Both the position numbers and the translations under genes were made by a program. From Hyphomonas sp. (GTDB lineage Bacteria; Pseudomonadota; Alphaproteobacteria; Caulobacterales; Hyphomonadaceae): a DNA stretch of 64,000 bases. Location of the stretch: NCBI RefSeq assembly GCF_013823385.1, contig NZ_PNMA01000022.1, positions 1 to 64,000 of the forward strand, in the 5' to 3' direction. Shown here in pieces: positions 7,588-28,263 of the stretch. Below the pieces are notes generated by a model. That model made no database searches. It was not told where the DNA came from and worked only from the letters and a program-made list of their open reading frames with translations. The first letter of the stretch is position 1. Every line of letters begins with the position of its first letter.

Positions 7588-9432
7588 GTGAACATTGCCA
7601 TCCTGATCGGCGCAGCGCTGGTGTCGCTGGCCGCTCTGACGAGCCTGGTGTCGCAGCGCTTCGGCGCGCCCCTGCTGCTCGTCTTCCTCGGGATCGGCCT
7701 GCTTGCGGGCGAAGACGGACTTCTGGGCATCGAGTTCGACAGCGGATCGGTGGCCTATTTCATTGGCTCGCTGGCGCTGGCGATCATTCTCTTCGACAGC
7801 GGTTTCGAGACACCGATGCGCAGCTACCGGGTGGCGGCGGCGCCGGCGCTGAGCCTGGCGACGTTCGGGGTGCTCCTGACCGCCGGCGTAACCGGGGGGG
7901 CAGCGCATTTCCTGTTCGGGATCGGCTGGCTTGAAGCGTTCCTGCTGGGATCGATCGTGGCGTCCACGGATGCGGCGGCGGTGTTCTTCCTGCTCAGGGC
8001 AGGGGGCATACGCCTGCGCGAGAAGGTCGGCTCGACCCTCGAGATCGAATCCGGGGCCAACGACCCGATGGCGATCTTCCTCACCATCCTGCTGATCGAG
8101 CTGATCGCGGCCAATGCGGGCGCCGGCGCGCTGTTCGGCTTTGAAGTCCTGACCACCTTCATCCAGCAGATGGGCCTCGGCATCCTGTTCGGCATCGTCG
8201 GCGGCTTCGGGATTGCCTGGCTGCTCAACCAGCTGGTGAACCTGGATCCCGGCCTCTACCCGATTTCGGGGCTGGCTGCGGCGCTGGTCGTGTTTGCCGT
8301 CTGCGCCCTGTTTGGCGGCAGCGGATTTCTGGCGGCCTATGTGGCGGGGGTAGTGGCCGGAAATCGCAAGGTGCGGTTTGCCCAGAGGCTGCGGCGCTTT
8401 CAGGTGGGCATGACCTGGCTGGCGCAGATCGGCATGTTCCTGGCGCTTGGCCTCCTGGCCACCCCGTCGGAGTTCCCGCAGATCCTGATTCCGGCGCTGG
8501 TGCTTTCGGCGGTCCTGATCTTTGTGGCCCGGCCGGTGGCGGTATGGCTCTGCCTGCTGCCGTTTGAGTTCAAGTCGCGTGAGACCGCCTTTACCAGCTG
8601 GGTCGGCCTGCGGGGGGCTGTCTCCATCCTGCTGGCGATCCTGCCGGGGCTGGCGGGCCTCGAGAATGGCAGCTTCTATTTCAACGTCGTGTTCGTGATG
8701 GTGCTGGTCTCGCTGCTGGTACAGGGGTGGACCCTGCAGCCGGTGGCGAAGCTTCTGAAGATGAGCCTGCCGTCCGAGCAGGGGCTGGTAGACCGGGTGG
8801 AGCTGGAACTGCGCGGGGCGACCGAGATGGAACTCGTCGGCTACAAGATCCACCCCGACAGCGCCATCGCCAGAGGCGAACGCGTGCCCCGCTGGGCAAG
8901 GCCGGTGATGGTGATCCGGGACGGGCTTTCCTATTCGGTCCACACAATCGGGCCGCTTCAGGCCAATGACCAGGTCTATCTCTTTGCCTCGGCCCGCCGC
9001 ATCCGTCTGCTGGACCAGATCTATGCCAGCCCCTGGGATGAAATGACGACGGAGTCCGACATACAGTTTCGCGTCAAGGGCGCCACCCGGATGGCTGACC
9101 TTGTGCGCCAGTATGGGCTGGAGGACATTGATGCCAGCGAGGGCGTCACGGCCGGACAGTTTCTGGAACGGTCTTTCAGCGGCAATCCCGTGGTGGGCGA
9201 CCGGGTGTCGGCGGGGGCGGTGGATATTGTCGTCTGCGCGCTTGACGATGCCGGCGGGGTGGCCACGGTCGGCATCGTGATCGACGAGGAAGACCCCGGC
9301 GCGGCGGCGCTGGCCGCCGATTTGCTGCGGCGGGCAGGGGCACGGCTTGGCGCCTTTTTCCGCCGTCCGAAGATCGCGGCCCCCGGCTCCGGCGAGAGCC
9401 GTCCGTCAAAGGATGTTAGTGGCCATTCCTGA
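7588..9432 (+). CDS. nhaP2: Potassium/proton antiporter, NhaP2/CvrA type (CPA1 family)
   Basis: The protein has 614 residues with 11-12 hydrophobic segments in the first 390, in a Na+/H+-exchanger fold. Conserved pieces include ILFDSGFETP, STDAAAVFFLLR and the ESGANDP motif carrying the ion-binding Asp. A cytoplasmic tail follows, with a TrkA-C/RCK_C-like domain (about 395-475) and then a CorC_HlyC-like domain (about 490-580), the arrangement of NhaP2 K+/H+ antiporters used against alkalinity and excess K+. The GTG at 7588 gives a plausible N-terminus. A strong AGGAG at 7562-7566 sits 9 bases ahead of an in-frame CTG (7576), so translation might begin slightly earlier. Confidence 0.88.
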   Translation: MNIAILIGAALVSLAALTSLVSQRFGAPLLLVFLGIGLLAGEDGLLGIEFDSGSVAYFIGSLALAIILFDSGFETPMRSYRVAAAPALSLATFGVLLTAGVTGGAAHFLFGIGWLEAFLLGSIVASTDAAAVFFLLRAGGIRLREKVGSTLEIESGANDPMAIFLTILLIELIAANAGAGALFGFEVLTTFIQQMGLGILFGIVGGFGIAWLLNQLVNLDPGLYPISGLAAALVVFAVCALFGGSGFLAAYVAGVVAGNRKVRFAQRLRRFQVGMTWLAQIGMFLALGLLATPSEFPQILIPALVLSAVLIFVARPVAVWLCLLPFEFKSRETAFTSWVGLRGAVSILLAILPGLAGLENGSFYFNVVFVMVLVSLLVQGWTLQPVAKLLKMSLPSEQGLVDRVELELRGATEMELVGYKIHPDSAIARGERVPRWARPVMVIRDGLSYSVHTIGPLQANDQVYLFASARRIRLLDQIYASPWDEMTTESDIQFRVKGATRMADLVRQYGLEDIDASEGVTAGQFLERSFSGNPVVGDRVSAGAVDIVVCALDDAGGVATVGIVIDEEDPGAAALAADLLRRAGARLGAFFRRPKIAAPGSGESRPSKDVSGHS

Positions 9433-9854
9433 GGCTCCTTGAACGTGTAGCACGCCTTGGCGGAAGCCATATATTTTCGCCTCAAATCTACACAAAAATT
9501 AGTAGGTATACGGATGTTAACTCCTGAGTAAGAGTTCTGCCGATGCGCTCTTCGATCGCACTCTCTTTACTCCGAGCGGTTGAGTGCGGCGACGGATTGG
9601 GTCAAAAGTATATTATTTTCAGAGGATTGGCCTTCGCATAGGTAGGTTCCCTTAGGCAGCGGGAACAAAGGTGAGGCGGGCGCCCGCCCGGCGAGGCTGT
9701 TGCTGATCCATTATTCGGCGAGGGGTGTTGCAGCGGCGCTACGTCTCAAAACCCTGACAATAATGTAATAAAAGCGTCGCGCACCCTCACTAATCGGCGC
9801 CTCGTTAACTGGGGCAATTTCCCGCCCCAGGTTCATCGCCTTGAGGGGGCATTC
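9433..9854. other. Long intergenic region upstream of TonB receptor
   Basis: These 422 bases contain no reading frame that I would call a gene and no tRNA-like fold. The first 150 bases are AT-richer than the neighbours. The last 12 bases include GAGGGGGC, the ribosome site of the TonB receptor, so the receptor leader and promoter must lie here. I could not pick out a Fur- or PhoB-like box by eye. Confidence 0.5.
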
Positions 9855-12629
9855 ATGTCAGTGCGCAATTCGGTTTCGTTTCTAGCTTTGTCAGGTCTGC
9901 TGGCCGCAGGCGCAATTGCTCTGCCGGCTTCGGCGCAGGAAGTTCTTGGCGGCCGCGTCGTGGATGCCAATGGCGCGCCTCTGCCTGGGGCCCGCGTCAC
10001 CGTTGCCGAAACGGGAACGTCAACCTCCACCAATCGCCAGGGTGAATTCACCCTGCCGTCGGTTCCGGCAGGCCCGCTGACCGTGCGCGTCGAATACATG
10101 GGTTTTCCGAATGCGGACAAGGCCGTGGATGTCGTTGCCGGCACGCCGTCGATGATCATCGTGACGCTGGGCGATGACGCCCGCGAGCTGGAGCGCGTGG
10201 TTGTCCAGGGCGCCATTCTTGACGGTCAGGCGCGCGCGCTCAACCAGCAACGCACCGCTTCCAACACGACCTCCATCGTTTCTTCCGATGCCATCGGCCG
10301 CTTCCCCGACTACAACGTCGCCGAAGCGCTGCAGCGGGTTCCGGGTTTCGCAATTTCACGCGATCAGGGCGAGGGCCGCACGATCAACCTGCGCGGGGCC
10401 CCTTCCGATTTCACGGCCATCACGGTGGACGGGGTTGCCATCGCTTCCCCCAACGCGACGACCCGCGCTGTGGACCTCGACACGGTCCCGTCCGATATCG
10501 TCAGCGCAATCGAAGTTTCCAAGACGCTGCTGCCCAATCAGGACGCCGACTCCATCGCCGGATCGGTCAATCTCGTGACGCGGTCCGCCTTTGACCGCCG
10601 GGGCCCGCACGCCTCGCTCGATATCGGCGTGAGCCAGAACGAAATCGACAGCAAGGCAGACTATAAAGGCTCGGCCCGCGTTTCAAATACCTTCGGCCGT
10701 GACGAGCAGTTTGGCTTCCTCGCCTCTGCCAGCTACTCGGTTGCCGACCGCTCGCTTGACAATATCGAGAACGCATGGGTCCGCCTGGATGATGGCAGCT
10801 TTGCCGTCGAGCAGGTTCTGTTCAAGGATTATGATACCAAGCGCACCCGCCAGTCCTACACCGGTGCCTTCGATTTCCGCCCTTCCGATCTTGCGAAATA
10901 CTATGTGCGCGGATCATACTCCAAGTTTGAAGACGACGAGTACCGCAACCAGCTGCTGCTGCAGTTGAGCGAAGGCACGCTTCAGCCGGGCAATACTGAT
11001 CTGACCGGTACCTGGGTGAACCCGCGCATCGAGAAAGAGCTGCGTCACCGCACCGTTGAAAATGAAATTTCCACCGTCTCGGCGGGCGGGGAGAACATTT
11101 TCTCCGGCATGACGGTTGACTACCAGCTGAGCTTCAACACCTCGGAATCGTCCTATCCTCAGCGTGATCAGCTGCTTTTCCGCTCCAGCCAGCGGCCAAC
11201 GATCAGCTATGATTATACCGATGCGAAGAACCCGCAGATCTCCCTGTTCGACACCAACCAGCACCTGAATTTCGGCGCGTTCGCATTCCGCCAGCTGGAT
11301 ACTCGCGCAGAAGCTCAGAAGACGGATGAATGGGCCGCGCGTGTCAACTTCACCGTGCCGTCGGAACTGTTTGGCAACGCTGCCGAATACCGGTTTGGCG
11401 CTGCATATCGCGACCGGGAAGTGACCCGCGATGACAACCGCTGGCGGTCGCGCGACGCCGGCCTGGCTCCTACCCAGACACTGGCGCAGCTTCAGTCGGC
11501 CGAACAGTCGAAGAATTTTGACTACAACCTCGGTTTCAAACTGGATCGCCAGGCGGTTGACTCCTATCTCGCCAGCATCAAGGCGAGACTCCTGACGGAC
11601 GGCAACCGCCGCGTTTCCCAGTCTATCGAGACCGACTTTACTGCCGAGGAAACGATTACGGCCGTTTACGGCATGGCTGACTTTGCCTATGGCAACACGG
11701 ACATCATTGCCGGCCTGCGCGTTGAGCAGACCGACTTCTCCTCGACGGCCTTCCGCTTCAATACGGCCACGGAGACGGCCACGCCGCTGGAAAATTCCAA
11801 CGACTATACGACGGTCTTCCCGAACCTGACGCTTCGCCACGAATTCGGCGAAAACCTGGTCGGCCGCCTCGCTCTGACGCGCGGCATCAATCGTCCGTCC
11901 TACCCGGATGTGGTGGCGCGCATTTCGGCAGGCGACACGCCTCCGCTGACGGTCGACCGTGGCAATCCGGACCTGAAGCCGACGCTTTCGAACAATTTCG
12001 ATGCTGGCCTTGAATACTACCTGCCCAATCTCGGCATCATCGCCGTGAACGGCTTCTACAAGCAGCTGGAAGACTTTGCCTACACCAACCGGATCACCGG
12101 CGCCGTGTTCGAAGGGGCGCCTGCGACGATCATCGAAGTGCGCAACTCGGATGAGGGCTATATTGCCGGGGTCGAGTTCAACTGGGCACAGAACTTCAAT
12201 TTCTCCGGTGTTCCGGGTACGTTCGGTATCATTGCCAACGTCACACTGACCGATTCGGAAGTGAAGCTCGGTTCTGCGGCGACGAGCGGCCGGTCGAAGG
12301 CCCCGCTGGAAGGCCAGTCGGACTATGTCGGCAACCTTGCCGTCTTCTGGGAGAATGAGCGCGCCAACATCCGTCTCTCCTACAATGATCGCGGCGACTA
12401 TGTGGACGCGCTCAATCTGGACGACCCGGCGCTGGATCTCTACTGGCAGGGCCGCGATCAGCTCGACCTGTCGGCGTCCTATGAGTTCACGCCGCAATTC
12501 GAGATGTATCTTGAGGCGAAGAACCTGACGGATACCGAAGGTCTGCGCTATTTCGGTTCCACCAGCCGCGTATATGAGCGTGAACGGTTCGGCCGCACGG
12601 CCTTCCTGGGCGCCCGTCTCAAATACTGA
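9855..12629 (+). CDS. TonB-dependent receptor, Caulobacter/Xanthomonas type with N-terminal regulatory-like domain
   Basis: This is a 924-residue outer-membrane receptor. It has a signal peptide (about 1-28, cleaved after ASA), then a carboxypeptidase-regulatory-like beta domain (about 30-105, with LPGARVTVAETGTSTST). The plug follows (about 120-235; VAEALQRVPGF and INLRGAPSDFTAITVDG), then a barrel to the end. The plug wording DTVPSDIVSAIEVSKTL is typical of the large TonB receptors of Caulobacter and Xanthomonas. The ligand is unknown. The next gene on the same strand encodes a secreted metallophosphoesterase, which suggests uptake of phosphorylated compounds or their products. The ATG follows a strong GAGGGGG ribosome site. 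Confidence 0.92.
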   Translation: MSVRNSVSFLALSGLLAAGAIALPASAQEVLGGRVVDANGAPLPGARVTVAETGTSTSTNRQGEFTLPSVPAGPLTVRVEYMGFPNADKAVDVVAGTPSMIIVTLGDDARELERVVVQGAILDGQARALNQQRTASNTTSIVSSDAIGRFPDYNVAEALQRVPGFAISRDQGEGRTINLRGAPSDFTAITVDGVAIASPNATTRAVDLDTVPSDIVSAIEVSKTLLPNQDADSIAGSVNLVTRSAFDRRGPHASLDIGVSQNEIDSKADYKGSARVSNTFGRDEQFGFLASASYSVADRSLDNIENAWVRLDDGSFAVEQVLFKDYDTKRTRQSYTGAFDFRPSDLAKYYVRGSYSKFEDDEYRNQLLLQLSEGTLQPGNTDLTGTWVNPRIEKELRHRTVENEISTVSAGGENIFSGMTVDYQLSFNTSESSYPQRDQLLFRSSQRPTISYDYTDAKNPQISLFDTNQHLNFGAFAFRQLDTRAEAQKTDEWAARVNFTVPSELFGNAAEYRFGAAYRDREVTRDDNRWRSRDAGLAPTQTLAQLQSAEQSKNFDYNLGFKLDRQAVDSYLASIKARLLTDGNRRVSQSIETDFTAEETITAVYGMADFAYGNTDIIAGLRVEQTDFSSTAFRFNTATETATPLENSNDYTTVFPNLTLRHEFGENLVGRLALTRGINRPSYPDVVARISAGDTPPLTVDRGNPDLKPTLSNNFDAGLEYYLPNLGIIAVNGFYKQLEDFAYTNRITGAVFEGAPATIIEVRNSDEGYIAGVEFNWAQNFNFSGVPGTFGIIANVTLTDSEVKLGSAATSGRSKAPLEGQSDYVGNLAVFWENERANIRLSYNDRGDYVDALNLDDPALDLYWQGRDQLDLSASYEFTPQFEMYLEAKNLTDTEGLRYFGSTSRVYERERFGRTAFLGARLKY

Positions 12630-20814: not shown

Positions 20815-20889
<75 letters not shown>

Positions 20890-24334: not shown

Positions 24335-24552
24335 TCCCGAGCGAAAGGCAAATGACAGCCGCTGGCAGGTTGCGCCTGGCAGCGTCTGTCATCCTGCCGC
24401 CGGCAGGCCGGCCCGCCAATGGGTATTCCGGCTGGCAATTCAATGGCCATTTGTTGCCGTTTTTCGATAAATACTTCTTGCGTGGCAAAACCGCTTTGCT
24501 ACCTTTCCGCCACGTCCGCAGTCCTGCGGGAAACATCGGAGGCGTGAGCAGA
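24335..24552 (+). promoter_or_regulatory. Leader region of the three-gene helical/DUF6384 operon
   Basis: These 218 bases separate the copper-type receptor from the next operon and must hold its promoter. The stretch around 24450-24500 is AT-richer than its surroundings. GGAGG at 24538-24542 is the ribosome site of the first gene. No clear terminator for the receptor gene is visible. Confidence 0.45.
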
Positions 24553-25743
24553 ATGGCGCAGACAACAAGCCCCTCGGCACTTCAGTATCTCGACAAGGCC
24601 ATGGGCGGGCTGAAACAGCTCGGGCTTGTGCCGGACAATTCCAGGAATGGGGCGGCGCCGATTGTGGCGCTGCTGGAACAGATTGCCCATCTGGAACCGG
24701 AGAAGGTGGCCGCCATTGCCCGCACGCTGGACCAGGCGAGCCTTTTCAATGATGTGGTGCGCGAGCAGGTGGCGGGCATCACCATCGGCGAGCGGTATCA
24801 GGCCATCACCACCGCCTTCAACACCATCCGGGACGACGCCAAGTCTCTCGTGGACCAGTATGCTGACGGCAAGATCTCCACCATGGAGCGCGTCTCGAAT
24901 GTCTGGATGAAGATGACGCGCGGCGACATCGCCGCTCGCTTCGGCAAGATCAAGGACATCTACCTCGAGGTTCAAAGCGAGTCGGCCAACCAGATCGACC
25001 GGGAACGGAAGATACTTGAGGCTTATCTCGATTTCCGCGGCGCGATGAAACAGTCCGAAGTGCTGGCGCTGGAGGTGCTGAAGGCAGCTGAGGCGGAGTT
25101 GGAAGCTGCAAGACTGAAAGTGGGTGAGGCGGTGGCCGCTGTCGCTGCCTATTCCGGTGAGGACGCGGCCGAGCGCGCGCGCCTCGAGCTTGCCCGTGAT
25201 GAGCAGCTGCGCCTGCTGCAGGCAGAGGAGAAGCGGTATCAGGTTTCCAAGGACCTCTCCGACAATATCACCATCGGCTATAATACCTCCGAAGTGATCA
25301 TGGCGCGGCTCGTTCAGACTACGAGCGCAAAGGAGCGGGTTTATGCTCAGTCTGTCAGCTTCTTCTCCACCAATGAGATCGTGCTGACGGCGCTGACAGC
25401 GAGCTTCACCGGCATGCACGGCCTGCACGAATCCACCCAGACGCTGGAAGCGATGAAGAAGGGGGTGGACCAGAGCCTGGAAGTGCTGGCCGATATTGGC
25501 GGGCAGATCCAGGAAGCGGCAGTGAAGGCGGGTTATGGCCCGACGGTTTCGGCGGCTTCGGTGAAAATGCTGGTGGAAAGCGTCGTCTCCTATCAGGAGC
25601 GTACACAGACGATCATCGCCGAGATGCGCAAGCTTGCCACCGTGAACTCTGAGGAAATCCGGGAAGCGGTGGAGGATGGCAAGCGCCGCCTGACGAAGCT
25701 GGTTGAGGAGGGCGCGACCCTCGCGCTGCTTCCCAAGCCGTGA
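24553..25743 (+). CDS. All-helical protein of unknown function, TelA-like C-terminal half
   Basis: The protein has 396 residues with no signal peptide and no TM segment, almost entirely predicted helix. An N-terminal helical region (about 1-140) includes ERVSNVWMKMTRGDIAARF. A long coiled coil follows (about 150-240, rich in Ala, Glu, Arg and Leu). The C-terminal 150 residues have alternating amphipathic helices that resemble in pattern, not in strict identity, the tail of TelA/toxic-anion-resistance proteins. The ATG at 24553 follows GGAGG with a 10-base gap; a GTG at 24544 is also possible. Its stop overlaps the start of the DUF6384 gene (GTGA). A cytosolic scaffold or membrane-stress role is speculation. 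Confidence 0.6.
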   Translation: MAQTTSPSALQYLDKAMGGLKQLGLVPDNSRNGAAPIVALLEQIAHLEPEKVAAIARTLDQASLFNDVVREQVAGITIGERYQAITTAFNTIRDDAKSLVDQYADGKISTMERVSNVWMKMTRGDIAARFGKIKDIYLEVQSESANQIDRERKILEAYLDFRGAMKQSEVLALEVLKAAEAELEAARLKVGEAVAAVAAYSGEDAAERARLELARDEQLRLLQAEEKRYQVSKDLSDNITIGYNTSEVIMARLVQTTSAKERVYAQSVSFFSTNEIVLTALTASFTGMHGLHESTQTLEAMKKGVDQSLEVLADIGGQIQEAAVKAGYGPTVSAASVKMLVESVVSYQERTQTIIAEMRKLATVNSEEIREAVEDGKRRLTKLVEEGATLALLPKP

Positions 25744-26690
25744 GCACGCCCGCCGTCCCGCAGGCAAAAGATACGAGCAAGCTCGACGATGTCCTTCTTG
25801 CGATGGATGTCGTCGACACGCTGCGCCACCGGGAACAGCTTGTCCTCAGCGAGCTGGATGCCGGGGCGCGGGAAGCGGCGCTGCTTGTGCGGCTGAAGGA
25901 AATCTATGCGGCCCAGGGCATCGATGTGCCCGAACATATCCTGAAGGAAGGCGTCAAGGCGCTGGAGGAACGCCGGTTTCAATATGAGCCGCCCAAGCCA
26001 TCCCTCTCCGTGACACTGGCGAAAATCTATATCGCGCGCAGCCGGTGGATGATGCCTGCTGCGCTGGCGGTGATTGCGGCGGGCTCGCTGGGCGCGGCCT
26101 GGCATCTGGGCGTGGCAGTGCCCGAGCGGCAGAGGGCAGAAGCAGCGCGGATCGAGATTGCCGATACGCTTCCCTCCGAGATCGGACGATTGCACGCGGC
26201 GGTGACGGGCGCGGCGCTGGAAGATGCTGCGCGGCTCAAGGCCGATGCCCTTAAGGCAGAGGGCGAGCGGGCGATTGCCGCGGGAGAGGTAAAGGCTGCC
26301 CGCGCAGCGCGGGACGCTCTGGCGGTGCTGCAGAAAGACGTGTTGGCGGTCTATGAGGTGCGGGTGGTCTATGGGCCGGGTGAGGCGCGGTCCGGCGTTT
26401 TCCGTATTCCCGAAGATGTGCCCGGCGGGCGCAATTATTATCTCATCGTGGAGGCCGTCGATCCGAATGGCGTGCTGGTTCAGGTGCCGGTGACGAGTGA
26501 GGAGGATCGCCGGTCGGCCCGGGTGACACGCTGGGGCCAGCGTGTTTCGGAGGCCGTGTTCCAGTCGGTGGCGGATGACAAAGGCGATGACCAGATCATC
26601 CAGAATTCCGTCATCGGACGGAAAACGGCCGGGTATCTCTCGCCGGAGTTCACCGTAGAGACGCCTGGCGGGGCCATTCTGAAATGGTGA
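25740..26690 (+). CDS. DUF6384-type single-pass membrane protein
   Basis: The protein has 316 residues. A cytoplasmic N-domain (1-100) contains LRHREQLVLSELDAG and two helices. One TM helix lies at about 103-122. A coiled-coil stalk follows (about 130-195, Ala/Glu/Arg-rich), then a beta-rich C-terminal domain with RNYYLIVEAVDPNG, DKGDDQIIQNSVIG and the ending PGGAILKW. I recognise this C-terminal pattern as DUF6384; no function is known to me. The GTG start overlaps the previous stop by four bases, so translation is coupled. The third gene starts four bases after its stop. It likely links a cytosolic partner with the periplasm. Confidence 0.65.
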   Translation: MSTPAVPQAKDTSKLDDVLLAMDVVDTLRHREQLVLSELDAGAREAALLVRLKEIYAAQGIDVPEHILKEGVKALEERRFQYEPPKPSLSVTLAKIYIARSRWMMPAALAVIAAGSLGAAWHLGVAVPERQRAEAARIEIADTLPSEIGRLHAAVTGAALEDAARLKADALKAEGERAIAAGEVKAARAARDALAVLQKDVLAVYEVRVVYGPGEARSGVFRIPEDVPGGRNYYLIVEAVDPNGVLVQVPVTSEEDRRSARVTRWGQRVSEAVFQSVADDKGDDQIIQNSVIGRKTAGYLSPEFTVETPGGAILKW

Positions 26691-26694
26691 CGGA

Positions 26695-28263
26695 ATGAGC
26701 AATACCTTTAATGGCCGCGACGCGCTCGCCGCAATCGATACGCTGGTCGCCCGCACGCGCCAGTCGCTGGCAGAGGCCTTGTCAGCTGCCGATGCTGCAG
26801 AGGCGCGCCGGGCGGCGATTCAGAAGGAACAGGCGGGCGCCTATGCCGCCCTGGCGCAGCTGAGGCTGAGCTATGCGCAGGCCGGGAATGGGGGCGTCTC
26901 CTCCCTTCAGAAGATAGCCGCGTCCACGAGCGACATTGCCGAGCGCCATGCCGCGTTCGTGGCGCGGGAGCGTGTCATGCTGGAAGCGGCAGCGGCGGCG
27001 CTGAATGCAAAAGAAACTGCGCGCGCCCAACTGGCAGCGGCGTATGACGAGGCCATCGCGGCCTTTGAGGCGCGGGTGGCCGAGGCTGAGGCGCAACTGA
27101 AACAGAGCAACGAATATGCCGTACTGACAGGCGCTGCCGAAGAGGCGCGCGCAATGACGGGGCGCGCGGCCGAGAAGCTGGAAATCGCGCGGGCAGACCG
27201 GGAAGAGAAGGGACGCTCCTACCGGGAAGACAAGCTGTTCAGCTATCTCTGGACACGGAAGTTCCGCTCGCCAGAGTACGAGGCCTCGCCGCTGATCCGG
27301 ATGCTGGATGGCTGGGTGGCAAGGCTCTGCCGGTATGATCAGGCCTTTCTCAATTATCAGCGCCTGACGGAGTTGCCCGAGCGCATTGCAGAACATGCCG
27401 CCTATATGGCCCGGCTCGCGGAAGAGGCCGAGGCAAAGCTGGTTGAGGCGGAAGCGGCCGCGATGGCTGCAGCAGGCACGGGCGCGCTGAAGGCAGAGGC
27501 GGAGACTGTTCGCGCCGCCATCGAGGCCTGCGACGCAGAGATCGCCGAGGCCGAAGCACGCTACCGGGAGACGGCAGAGCGACACGAAGCGGCCTTGCGG
27601 CAGGAGGTTGGTCCTGCGGTGGAAGCACGTCAGATGCTGGAAGCGGAGTTGCGCAAGGCGAGCTTTCCGGATCTGCGCGTGCTGGCGGCGGAAACGGCTG
27701 AGCTGGATGATGACCGGCTGGTGGATAAGCTCGTGCGGTTGCGGGCCGAAGAGATGAACCTGGAGCTGGAGGCGGGCCGGGTAGCGGCCCGGCCGGGCGC
27801 CCTGCGGGATGAGCTGGGGCGGGTGGAGGCGCTGCGCCGGCAGTTCAAGCAGGCGCGGTTTGACAGTCCTTATGCCGTTGTTTCCAAAGCCGCTTTTGAC
27901 GAAGTGATGGCCGATCTGATGCGGGACAAGGTTGATGTGCGCGGCGCATTGCAGCGGCTGAGCCGGGCGGTGCGGCGGGCGGAGGCGCCGGCCCAGGCCC
28001 ACCCCGATTTCGGGGGACAGGGCCGCAGCCAGACGATTGGCCTGCCCGATGTGCTGGGGGGTATGATCGGCGGCGTCCTGGGCGAAGTGCTGGAGGAAGT
28101 GATCCGCGAGACGACGCGTGGCGGGGGTGGATACGGGTCGGGCCCGATCTTTCCGGGGCCGCCGAAGCGCCCCTCGCGGCCGTCCCGCAGCGGCGGGCGA
28201 TCCTTCCCCTCAGGCGGGGGAAGGAAGGGCGGTGGCGGGTTCAAGACCGGCGGGGGTTTCTGA
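26695..28263 (+). CDS. Long coiled-coil protein with Gly-rich tail, unknown function
   Basis: The protein has 522 residues with no signal peptide. Residues about 1-400 are nearly continuous Ala/Glu/Arg-rich coiled coil, interrupted by a conserved-looking globular piece with KLFSYLWTRKFRSPEY (about 180-195) and RYDQAFLNYQRL. Residues about 445-465 form a Gly-containing amphipathic helix (GGMIGGVLGEVLEEVI). The last 50 residues are Gly/Ser/Arg/Pro-rich and end in FKTGGGF. This suggests a filamentous scaffold with a flexible adhesive or condensate-forming tail. It is the last gene of the operon and meets the convergent acyl-CoA dehydrogenase gene with only six bases between them. Confidence 0.6.
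   Translation: MSNTFNGRDALAAIDTLVARTRQSLAEALSAADAAEARRAAIQKEQAGAYAALAQLRLSYAQAGNGGVSSLQKIAASTSDIAERHAAFVARERVMLEAAAAALNAKETARAQLAAAYDEAIAAFEARVAEAEAQLKQSNEYAVLTGAAEEARAMTGRAAEKLEIARADREEKGRSYREDKLFSYLWTRKFRSPEYEASPLIRMLDGWVARLCRYDQAFLNYQRLTELPERIAEHAAYMARLAEEAEAKLVEAEAAAMAAAGTGALKAEAETVRAAIEACDAEIAEAEARYRETAERHEAALRQEVGPAVEARQMLEAELRKASFPDLRVLAAETAELDDDRLVDKLVRLRAEEMNLELEAGRVAARPGALRDELGRVEALRRQFKQARFDSPYAVVSKAAFDEVMADLMRDKVDVRGALQRLSRAVRRAEAPAQAHPDFGGQGRSQTIGLPDVLGGMIGGVLGEVLEEVIRETTRGGGGYGSGPIFPGPPKRPSRPSRSGGRSFPSGGGRKGGGGFKTGGGF

What the first reader, a model, noticed from the sequence alone, without database searches (positions are those of the whole stretch)
24553..28263. Uncharacterised three-gene operon: TelA-like helical protein, DUF6384 membrane protein, coiled-coil protein with Gly-rich tail
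The three genes are packed without gaps (GTGA overlap, then four bases) and none has a function I know. The first is a soluble helical protein with a TelA-like tail. The second spans the membrane once and carries a distinctive beta domain ending PGGAILKW. The third is a 400-residue coiled coil with a glycine-zipper-like helix and a disordered FKTGGGF tail. Together they look like a cytosolic scaffold tied to the envelope through one transmembrane partner, possibly for envelope stress, membrane remodelling or defence. The composition and fixed order suggest a conserved module.
Basis: partly seen in the sequence, partly recalled or inferred. Interest (0 to 1): 0.82.

Follow-up and report, generated by a model that had tools for sequence, protein, structure and literature searches.

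The report
Conserved three-gene membrane scaffold module
Three neighbouring genes of unknown function form one unit that is inherited together, found in Hyphomonas, many other bacteria, some large plasmids and one giant phage, and they probably build a membrane-anchored helical scaffold that protects the cell envelope.

Summary
Three tightly packed genes lie at 24553-28263. Gene 2 is a full DUF6384 protein. Genes 1 and 3 reach no curated cut-off in Pfam or NCBIfam and have no convincing PHROGs or PADLOC match. The trio is a true module: of the 80 loci nearest to gene 2, 78 hold all three in one order and strand, and the other 2 are cut by contig ends. No other neighbour recurs beyond a few related genera. 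In Hyphomonas one genome has an empty site (tRNA-Val followed directly by acyl-CoA dehydrogenase) and another has exactly these three genes there. The module is also on plasmids and, in the same order, in jumbo phage phiR1-37.

Gene 1 is predicted as an all-helical bundle. TelA kinship is hinted at by fold but not established by sequence. Gene 3's glycine-rich helix is not universal; its C-terminal F-x-T-G-x-x-F tail nearly is.

Best guess: a membrane-anchored cytoplasmic scaffold for envelope protection, working like TelA-XpaC or Psp. Function is unproven (0.4).

The parts
20815..20889 (+). tRNA-Val (GAC): left border of the variable site in Hyphomonas; not part of the module itself
   Evidence: comparison with empty and occupied sites
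24459..24471 (+). GTTTTTCGATAAA, conserved element upstream of gene 1 (imperfect palindrome around T5); candidate regulator binding site
   Evidence: aligned upstream regions; 8 of 85 upstream regions, all Hyphomonas; two exact copies in the genome, 0 for the reversed control; 84 sites against 2 for the reversed control in 41 genomes for the 12-mer
24477..24505 (+). putative promoter CTTGCG-17-TACCTT (inference)
   Evidence: read from the sequence and the alignment; the generic sigma-70 scan did not list it
24553..25743 (+). gene 1 (P1, 396 aa): soluble, predicted all-helical, the most conserved of the three
25740..26690 (+). gene 2 (P2, 316 aa, GTG start): DUF6384; N-terminal helices, one TM span, long helix, C-terminal beta domain ending in Trp
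26049..26120 (+). transmembrane span of gene 2 (about residues 104-127)
   Evidence: hydropathy peak residues 109-127; helix 100-158 in the model
26695..28263 (+). gene 3 (P3, 522 aa): reads as a long helical/coiled-coil protein with a Gly/Ser-rich tail; structure not predicted here
28240..28260 (+). conserved C-terminal motif FKTGGGF of gene 3

Best explanation
The three genes encode one membrane-anchored cytoplasmic scaffold. Gene 2 is the anchor: its helical N domain is in the cytoplasm, it crosses the inner membrane once, and it places a long helix and a beta domain in the periplasm. Gene 1, a helical bundle, assembles on the cytoplasmic side, probably against the N domain of gene 2. Gene 3 is a helical rod whose flexible tail presents the fixed F-x-T-G-x-x-F end as a docking motif that links the parts. 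In Hyphomonas a regulator that binds the upstream element controls it. The assembly protects or reshapes the inner membrane under envelope stress. In this it works like the TelA-XpaC pair or PspA with its membrane partners, without being shown to be a member of either. Shown here: the module, its order, its co-inheritance, the single span of gene 2 and the conserved ends. Predicted: the structures of genes 1 and 2 and the N-in topology. Inferred: the shape of gene 3, the complex, the oligomerisation, the docking, the regulator and the envelope-stress role.
For: Fixed order in 78 of 80 loci, the other 2 cut by contig ends, and in all 5 plasmid regions read of 11 records with gene 1. Genes 1 and 2 occur in the same 2 of 398 genomes. 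A site with exactly the three genes against an empty site. Gene 1: no TM span in 86 of 86, model all-helical. Gene 2: one span in 70 of 86 at the threshold used (16 fall below it), N side more positive in 69 of those 70; confident model with a C-terminal beta domain. Gene 3: terminal motif in 77 of 84; of the other seven, five are cut by contig ends and two end FRTRDKF. The only other exact copy of the upstream 13-mer in the genome lies before a TM2 membrane-protein gene. TelA or tellurite proteins are at ranks 8, 22 and 26 of the BFVD search with gene 1. XpaC-like and telA1 genes are listed side by side, both raised, in a Lactococcus membrane-protein overproduction table of a paper on the envelope-stress regulator CesSR (PMC3139573, passage). 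A Listeria TelA mutant is reported as more nisin- and tellurite-sensitive (PMC12791056, passage).
Against: No direct functional evidence. No clear sequence link to TelA: hhalign probability 1.8%, and gene 3's coiled coil scores as high against gene 1. No fold match reached E 0.001 for gene 1 or gene 2; TM-scores of the TelA hits are 0.27-0.30, and the same lists hold many other long helical proteins. Residues 288-330 of the gene 1 model are unreliable. Interaction was not modelled and gene 3 was not folded. The upstream element was found in 8 of 85 upstream regions, Hyphomonas only, and the 12-mer has a third site in the genome with no clear gene. Flanking genes give no envelope-stress context.
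Confidence: 0.4

Rival explanations
1. A portable phage-defence or superinfection-exclusion module: a membrane-anchored sensor (gene 2) with helical effectors that change the membrane on infection; the jumbo phage and the plasmids carry it to shut out competitors.
For: Patchy distribution: 13 of 61 relatives, 2 of 398 in the phylum sample. Carried by plasmids and by phage phiR1-37. Present or absent as a unit beside a tRNA gene in Hyphomonas. One Hyphomonas copy is broken beside what reads as an integrase fragment. A few flanking proteins match PADLOC families: 65 families, none in more than one protein, mostly UvrD-type helicase (GajB) models, also RTasHel and mads_3 among the 25 shown.
Against: The only PADLOC match in the three proteins is BrxC at E 0.37. 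No PADLOC family recurs in the 146 flanking proteins. No enzyme or toxin family recognised. Gene 1 is 60-80% identical to the window protein in 32 of 33 other rows, slower than arms-race proteins usually evolve (general knowledge).
Confidence: 0.2
2. Cytoskeleton-like organiser: gene 1 and gene 3 form filaments or a mesh anchored by gene 2 that positions DNA, large replicons or other cell structures.
For: Long helices in gene 1 and a coiled-coil-like gene 3. Present on five plasmids of 335-972 kb and in a 262-kb phage.
Against: No DNA- or nucleotide-binding family above a cut-off. Also in many chromosomes. No recurrent neighbour of any kind.
Confidence: 0.12
3. Oxyanion or metal tolerance module of the Tel/Ter type: gene 1 is a very distant TelA and the module lowers tellurite or cell-wall antibiotic damage.
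For: Three TelA or tellurite-resistance proteins among the first 26 BFVD matches to gene 1, each aligned over nearly the full length. hhalign score to TelA reached by only 1 of 60 block-shuffled TelA profiles. A telA gene next to a membrane-protein gene is a parallel.
Against: No PF05816 match in gene 1 or in the own genome. Gene 3's coiled coil scores as high as TelA against gene 1.
Confidence: 0.13
4. Three-part helical pore-forming toxin of the HBL/AHL/Smh type.
For: Foldseek PDB hits to AhlB, SmhB and the HBL binding component with probability 0.69-0.96, TM up to 0.48; three genes in a row.
Against: E-values of these hits are 0.089 or worse, and TolC-type and other helical proteins rank beside them. 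Gene 1 has no hydrophobic segment in 86 of 86 members, and I see no signal peptide in the sequence. Gene 2 is a membrane anchor with another predicted fold.
Confidence: 0.03

Closest known systems
DUF6384 (PF19911)
   Same: Gene 2 matches the full profile at 371.5 bits.
   Different: Nothing: it is a member. The family's Pfam title is 'unknown function', and no paper of the held library names it.
TelA (PF05816) with XpaC
   Same: Soluble helical protein beside a membrane protein in one operon-like pair; TelA proteins among the better viral fold matches of gene 1.
   Different: No Pfam match, sequence-profile signal inconclusive. Here a third gene with a Gly-rich tail is present in 78 of 80 loci, and DUF6384 stands where XpaC would.
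PspA/IM30 with PspB/PspC (recalled as the classic envelope-stress scaffold)
   Same: Helical cytosolic proteins and a small membrane partner, by inference only.
   Different: No PspA or PspB/C family in the reported Pfam matches of genes 1-3.
Yersinia phage phiR1-37 gp190-gp192
   Same: Same three families in the same order: gp190 40% identical to gene 1 over 97%, gp191 DUF6384 (E 7.6e-35), gp192 with the same kind of tail.
   Different: gp191 is longer (440 residues); gp192 matches the gene 3 profile only weakly (E 0.0057).
AhlB/SmhB/HBL-B helical pore-forming proteins
   Same: Long helical bundle; Foldseek probability up to 0.96.
   Different: TM below 0.5, no hydrophobic segment, no secretion signal seen, different partners.

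Membership tests
DUF6384 (PF19911) | profile match over the curated cut-off (25 bits) | tested here: met
   371.5 bits, positions 2-308 of 308
TelA (PF05816) | profile match over the curated cut-off (30 bits) | tested here: not met
   no match in gene 1 at E 1; no match to PF05816 in the own genome
TelA (PF05816) | profile-profile similarity above background | tested here: inconclusive
   score 24.2, reached by 1 of 60 block-shuffled TelA profiles, but gene 3's coiled coil scores 25.6 against gene 1
TelA (PF05816) | same fold | tested here: inconclusive
   TelA at BFVD ranks 8, 22, 26: probability 0.92, 0.72, 0.77, TM 0.27-0.30, E 0.03-0.13
PspA/IM30 | Pfam profile match in gene 1 or gene 3 | tested here: not met
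   not among reported families for genes 1 and 3 or the 16 + 42 family members scanned (one search shows 25 of its 30 families)
PspA/IM30 or TelA-XpaC system | induction by envelope stress and a stress phenotype | not testable with these tools
   needs experiments
Known anti-phage defence systems (PADLOC) | profile match to a system component | tested here: not met
   only BrxC at E 0.37 in gene 3
HBL/AHL-type pore-forming proteins | hydrophobic head segment | tested here: not met
   no segment over the hydropathy threshold in 86 of 86 gene 1 homologues

The most novel reading that the evidence does not exclude
An undescribed, self-contained membrane-guarding scaffold that is traded between chromosomes, large plasmids and a giant phage. 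In the phage and the plasmids it would keep the host envelope intact or closed to rivals. Its assembly would depend on a short C-terminal F-x-T-G-x-x-F docking tail.
Probability: 0.2. Interest if true: 0.8.

Novelty: new variant of a known kind. Interest (0 to 1): 0.57.

Why it matters
The trio is a clear case of an obligate module whose parts have no known function: fixed order in distant bacteria, plasmids and a jumbo phage, and clean presence or absence within one genus. The empty site and the three-gene-only site make a deletion or transplant test direct. A conserved C-terminal motif and a confident DUF6384 model give testable interfaces. If it protects the envelope it would add a system beside Psp and TelA-XpaC in Proteobacteria; if it excludes phages it would explain why a phage carries it.

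Tried and rejected
TelA homology by sequence: profile comparison at full length, N and C halves, local and global, all under 4% probability. Calibration: 1 of 60 block-shuffled TelA profiles reached the real score (24.2), the reversed TelA gave 17.8, the gene 2 family 15.3, but the gene 3 family 25.6. Left as inconclusive.

Solved-structure sequence searches gave only weak matches: best E 0.25 for gene 1 alone, 0.19 and 0.054 for the gene 1 and gene 2 profiles, and 0.00066 (a designed helical protein), then coiled coils, for gene 3. Pfam hits below cut-off for gene 1 (TetR_C_24, E 0.00087, 5 of 16 members) were taken as helical resemblance. Foldseek of gene 2 against PDB: best E 0.27.

I considered phiR1-37 as a nucleus-forming phage. 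A passage in PMC10299810 uses it as a phage with multisubunit RNA polymerases but no chimallin homologue, so this was dropped.

Viral contigs (L123-L126, L205-L208): L205 is phiR1-37 itself (100%, 262,391 bases). In L123-L125 a tRNA-Leu lies upstream of the module, and in L123 an integrase-like ORF lies beyond it, so these are read as probable chromosomal flank of a prophage (not proven).

tRNA integration: no second copy of the tRNA-Val 3' end in the window, so no attachment repeat seen. Outside Hyphomonas few of the scanned loci have a tRNA.

Empty-site survey: 15 stretches from 14 genomes. Three hold the module (L160-L162), one is a clean empty site (L158). In L167 the response regulator and dehydrogenase lie about 4 kb apart without the module. 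The others do not show both flanks and say nothing.

Flank scan: 216 neighbours were called in 40 loci by my own gene caller. The first and second on each side are 149; I left out 3 at contig edges and scanned 146. No Pfam family is in more than 3 (LysM and BON, 3 each; 25 of 183 families shown). No background set was run.

phiR1-37 papers PMC4848604 and PMC13030884: the terms g190-g192 and Gp190-Gp192 do not occur in the main text.
Full report
WHAT IS THERE. The three genes are as described: gene 1 24553-25743, gene 2 25740-26690 (GTG start overlapping the stop of gene 1) and gene 3 26695-28263, all on +. Gene 2 is a full DUF6384 protein. Genes 1 and 3 reach no curated cut-off in Pfam or NCBIfam, have no PHROGs match at E 0.1, and the only PADLOC match is BrxC at E 0.37. 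The genome has one DUF6384 gene, this one. The closest named relatives are Hyphomonas.

A MODULE. An alignment of 13 DUF6384 proteins (A1) was used to scan the collection of 84,980 species genomes. Of these 80 loci, 78 hold all three genes in order on one strand; the other two, L046 and L079, end just after gene 2. In L093 genes 1 and 3 are broken into several frames. The hosts are mainly Alphaproteobacteria, with Gammaproteobacteria, a Desulfofustis, a Pirellulales and a Trueperaceae bin. Many are metagenome bins; one labelled Acidobacteria (L022) has 70% identity and the Hyphomonas flank genes, so odd hosts may be mislabelled. Searching with gene 1 gave the same two genomes of 398 as DUF6384 did. 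Gene 3 gave 5 of 240: two strong (one with two copies) and three weak partial coiled-coil matches (E 3e-5 to 6e-4) that I take as chance. Beside the module no other gene recurs beyond related genera.

GAIN AND LOSS. Among 61 relatives 13 have DUF6384, one of them (G023) only its C-terminal third beside what reads as an integrase fragment. In Hyphomonas the site lies between a response-regulator gene with tRNA-Val(GAC) and an acyl-CoA dehydrogenase gene. Genome G022, which lacks DUF6384, has the tRNA followed directly by the dehydrogenase. Genome G664 has the tRNA, then the three genes only, then the dehydrogenase. This rests on one empty and one three-gene-only site out of 15 stretches fetched. 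The window has extra genes, including what reads as a TonB-type receptor, between tRNA and module. No repeat of the tRNA end marks an integration.

PLASMIDS AND PHAGE. Gene 1 relatives occur in 11 of 72,556 plasmid records and gene 2 relatives in 8. I read 5 regions, and in all 5 the three genes are adjacent in order. Among 50,697 phage records gene 1 relatives occur in one phage, Yersinia phage phiR1-37, held under two accessions. gp190, gp191 and gp192 are the three genes in order: gp190 E 3.7e-133, gp191 E 7.6e-35, gp192 only E 0.0057 but in the same place and with a tail ending SSSDSF. None of the three carries the 'phage structural protein' note that several neighbours carry. A second viral scan found the same phage and four contigs that look like chromosome beside a prophage. 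In the gene 1 tree the phage groups with two Pseudomonas megaplasmid copies (support 99/93), but the program warns that long branches make such joins unsure. The Pseudomonas plasmid, viral-contig and phage forms have a longer gene 2 product, about 395-492 residues; the Bradyrhizobium plasmid copy has the chromosomal length.

THE PROTEINS. Gene 1 is the most conserved: 60-80% identity to the window protein in 32 of 33 other rows, 45% in the last (plasmid and phage copies, 37-41%, are). It has no hydrophobic span in 86 of 86. Its model is all-helical with helices of 74 and 82 residues and a long C-terminal helix; mean pLDDT 78, pTM 0.67, residues 288-330 below 50. Gene 2 has one span in 70 of 86 at a strict threshold, and in 69 of those 70 the N side is more positive, so N-in is likely. 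Its model has mean pLDDT 89.8, pTM 0.67: N-terminal helices, a 59-residue helix that includes the span, two more helices and a C-terminal beta domain; the first 20 residues are uncertain. 84 of 86 end in Trp. Gene 3 reads as helical and was not folded. 76 of 84 end in Phe and 77 of 84 carry the terminal motif; of the seven without it five are cut by contig ends and two end FRTRDKF. A glycine-rich hydrophobic helix before the tail occurs in the window and 8 Hyphomonas-type loci and, at another position, in 13 Microvirga-type rows. It may touch the membrane in those lineages but is not universal.

FOLD COMPARISON. No match below E 0.001 for gene 1 (PDB, BFVD) or gene 2 (PDB). For gene 1 the BFVD list holds three named TelA or tellurite proteins in the first 26 (probability 0.72-0.92, TM 0.27-0.30), among tail-fibre, tape-measure and other long helical proteins. 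The PDB list holds AhlB, SmhB and HBL-B (probability 0.69-0.96, TM up to 0.48) beside TolC-type and other helical proteins. Both are helical-bundle resemblances, too weak for membership. TelA by sequence is inconclusive.

REGULATION. In 8 of 85 upstream regions, all Hyphomonas, GTTTTTCGATAA lies about 114-118 bases before the gene 1 profile start, followed by a promoter-like CTTG-17-TAC by my reading. The 13-mer with a final A occurs twice in the 4.18-Mb genome, 0 times for the reversed control. The second copy precedes a TM2-domain membrane-protein gene. G022, which lacks the module, also has a copy before what reads as the same promoter. In 41 genomes the 12-mer gives 84 sites against 2 for the control, before several kinds of gene, and some with no clear gene, including a third site in the own genome. 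So a shared regulator is likely, but its identity and signal are unknown.

HOW IT MAY WORK. The topology (cytosolic helical protein, single-span anchor with periplasmic domain, coiled-coil protein with a conserved tail) and the obligate trio point to one assembly on the inner membrane. The best analogy I found is envelope protection. XpaC-like and telA1 genes stand side by side, both raised, in a transcriptome table of Lactococcus overproducing membrane proteins, in a paper on the envelope-stress regulator CesSR (PMC3139573, passage seen). A Listeria TelA mutant is reported as more nisin- and tellurite-sensitive (PMC12791056, passage seen). This is analogy, not demonstration.

IN PRINT. No paper in the held library has DUF6384 or PF19911; FRTGGGF occurs in one paper, on crustacean peptides (seen in the listing only), and FKTGGGF in none.

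Noticed in passing
L173 (G000:C5:20745-20757) and window 24459-24471: The 13-mer GTTTTTCGATAAA occurs exactly twice in the genome, before the module and before a TM2-domain gene; the 12-mer looks like a small genus-wide regulon in Hyphomonas, with a tandem pair 21 bp apart in two genomes (G007, G018).
   Followed up: partly
L013 (G023:C2:240399-243689): A Hyphomonas genome keeps gene 3 (as far as the stretch reaches) and only the last third of DUF6384, next to what reads as an integrase C-terminus: a decayed copy of the module.
   Followed up: no
L028 and L044: Two copies of the module in one alphaproteobacterial bin (IP29b_bin.177), gene 2 about 48% and 51% identical to the window.
   Followed up: no
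L177, L182, L184, L187, L191, L192, L201, L202, L203: A conserved protein of about 142 residues, with no Pfam match at E 0.01 (only L184 tested), starts 26-39 bases after the same upstream element in these Hyphomonas genomes.
   Followed up: partly
L099 (pMPPla107) 8582-10471: The module on this plasmid is preceded by genes annotated as StiP-domain cysteine protease and metallophosphoesterase, which I recall as neighbours in Ter-type stress clusters.
   Followed up: no
L040, L050, L054, L056, L061, L062, L063, L069, L072, L076, L085, L092, L095 (gene 3): Gene 3 of Microvirga-type copies has a strongly hydrophobic glycine-rich helix such as VLGGVLTGAIGGAILGQVL before the tail, at a different alignment position from the window's.
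   Followed up: partly
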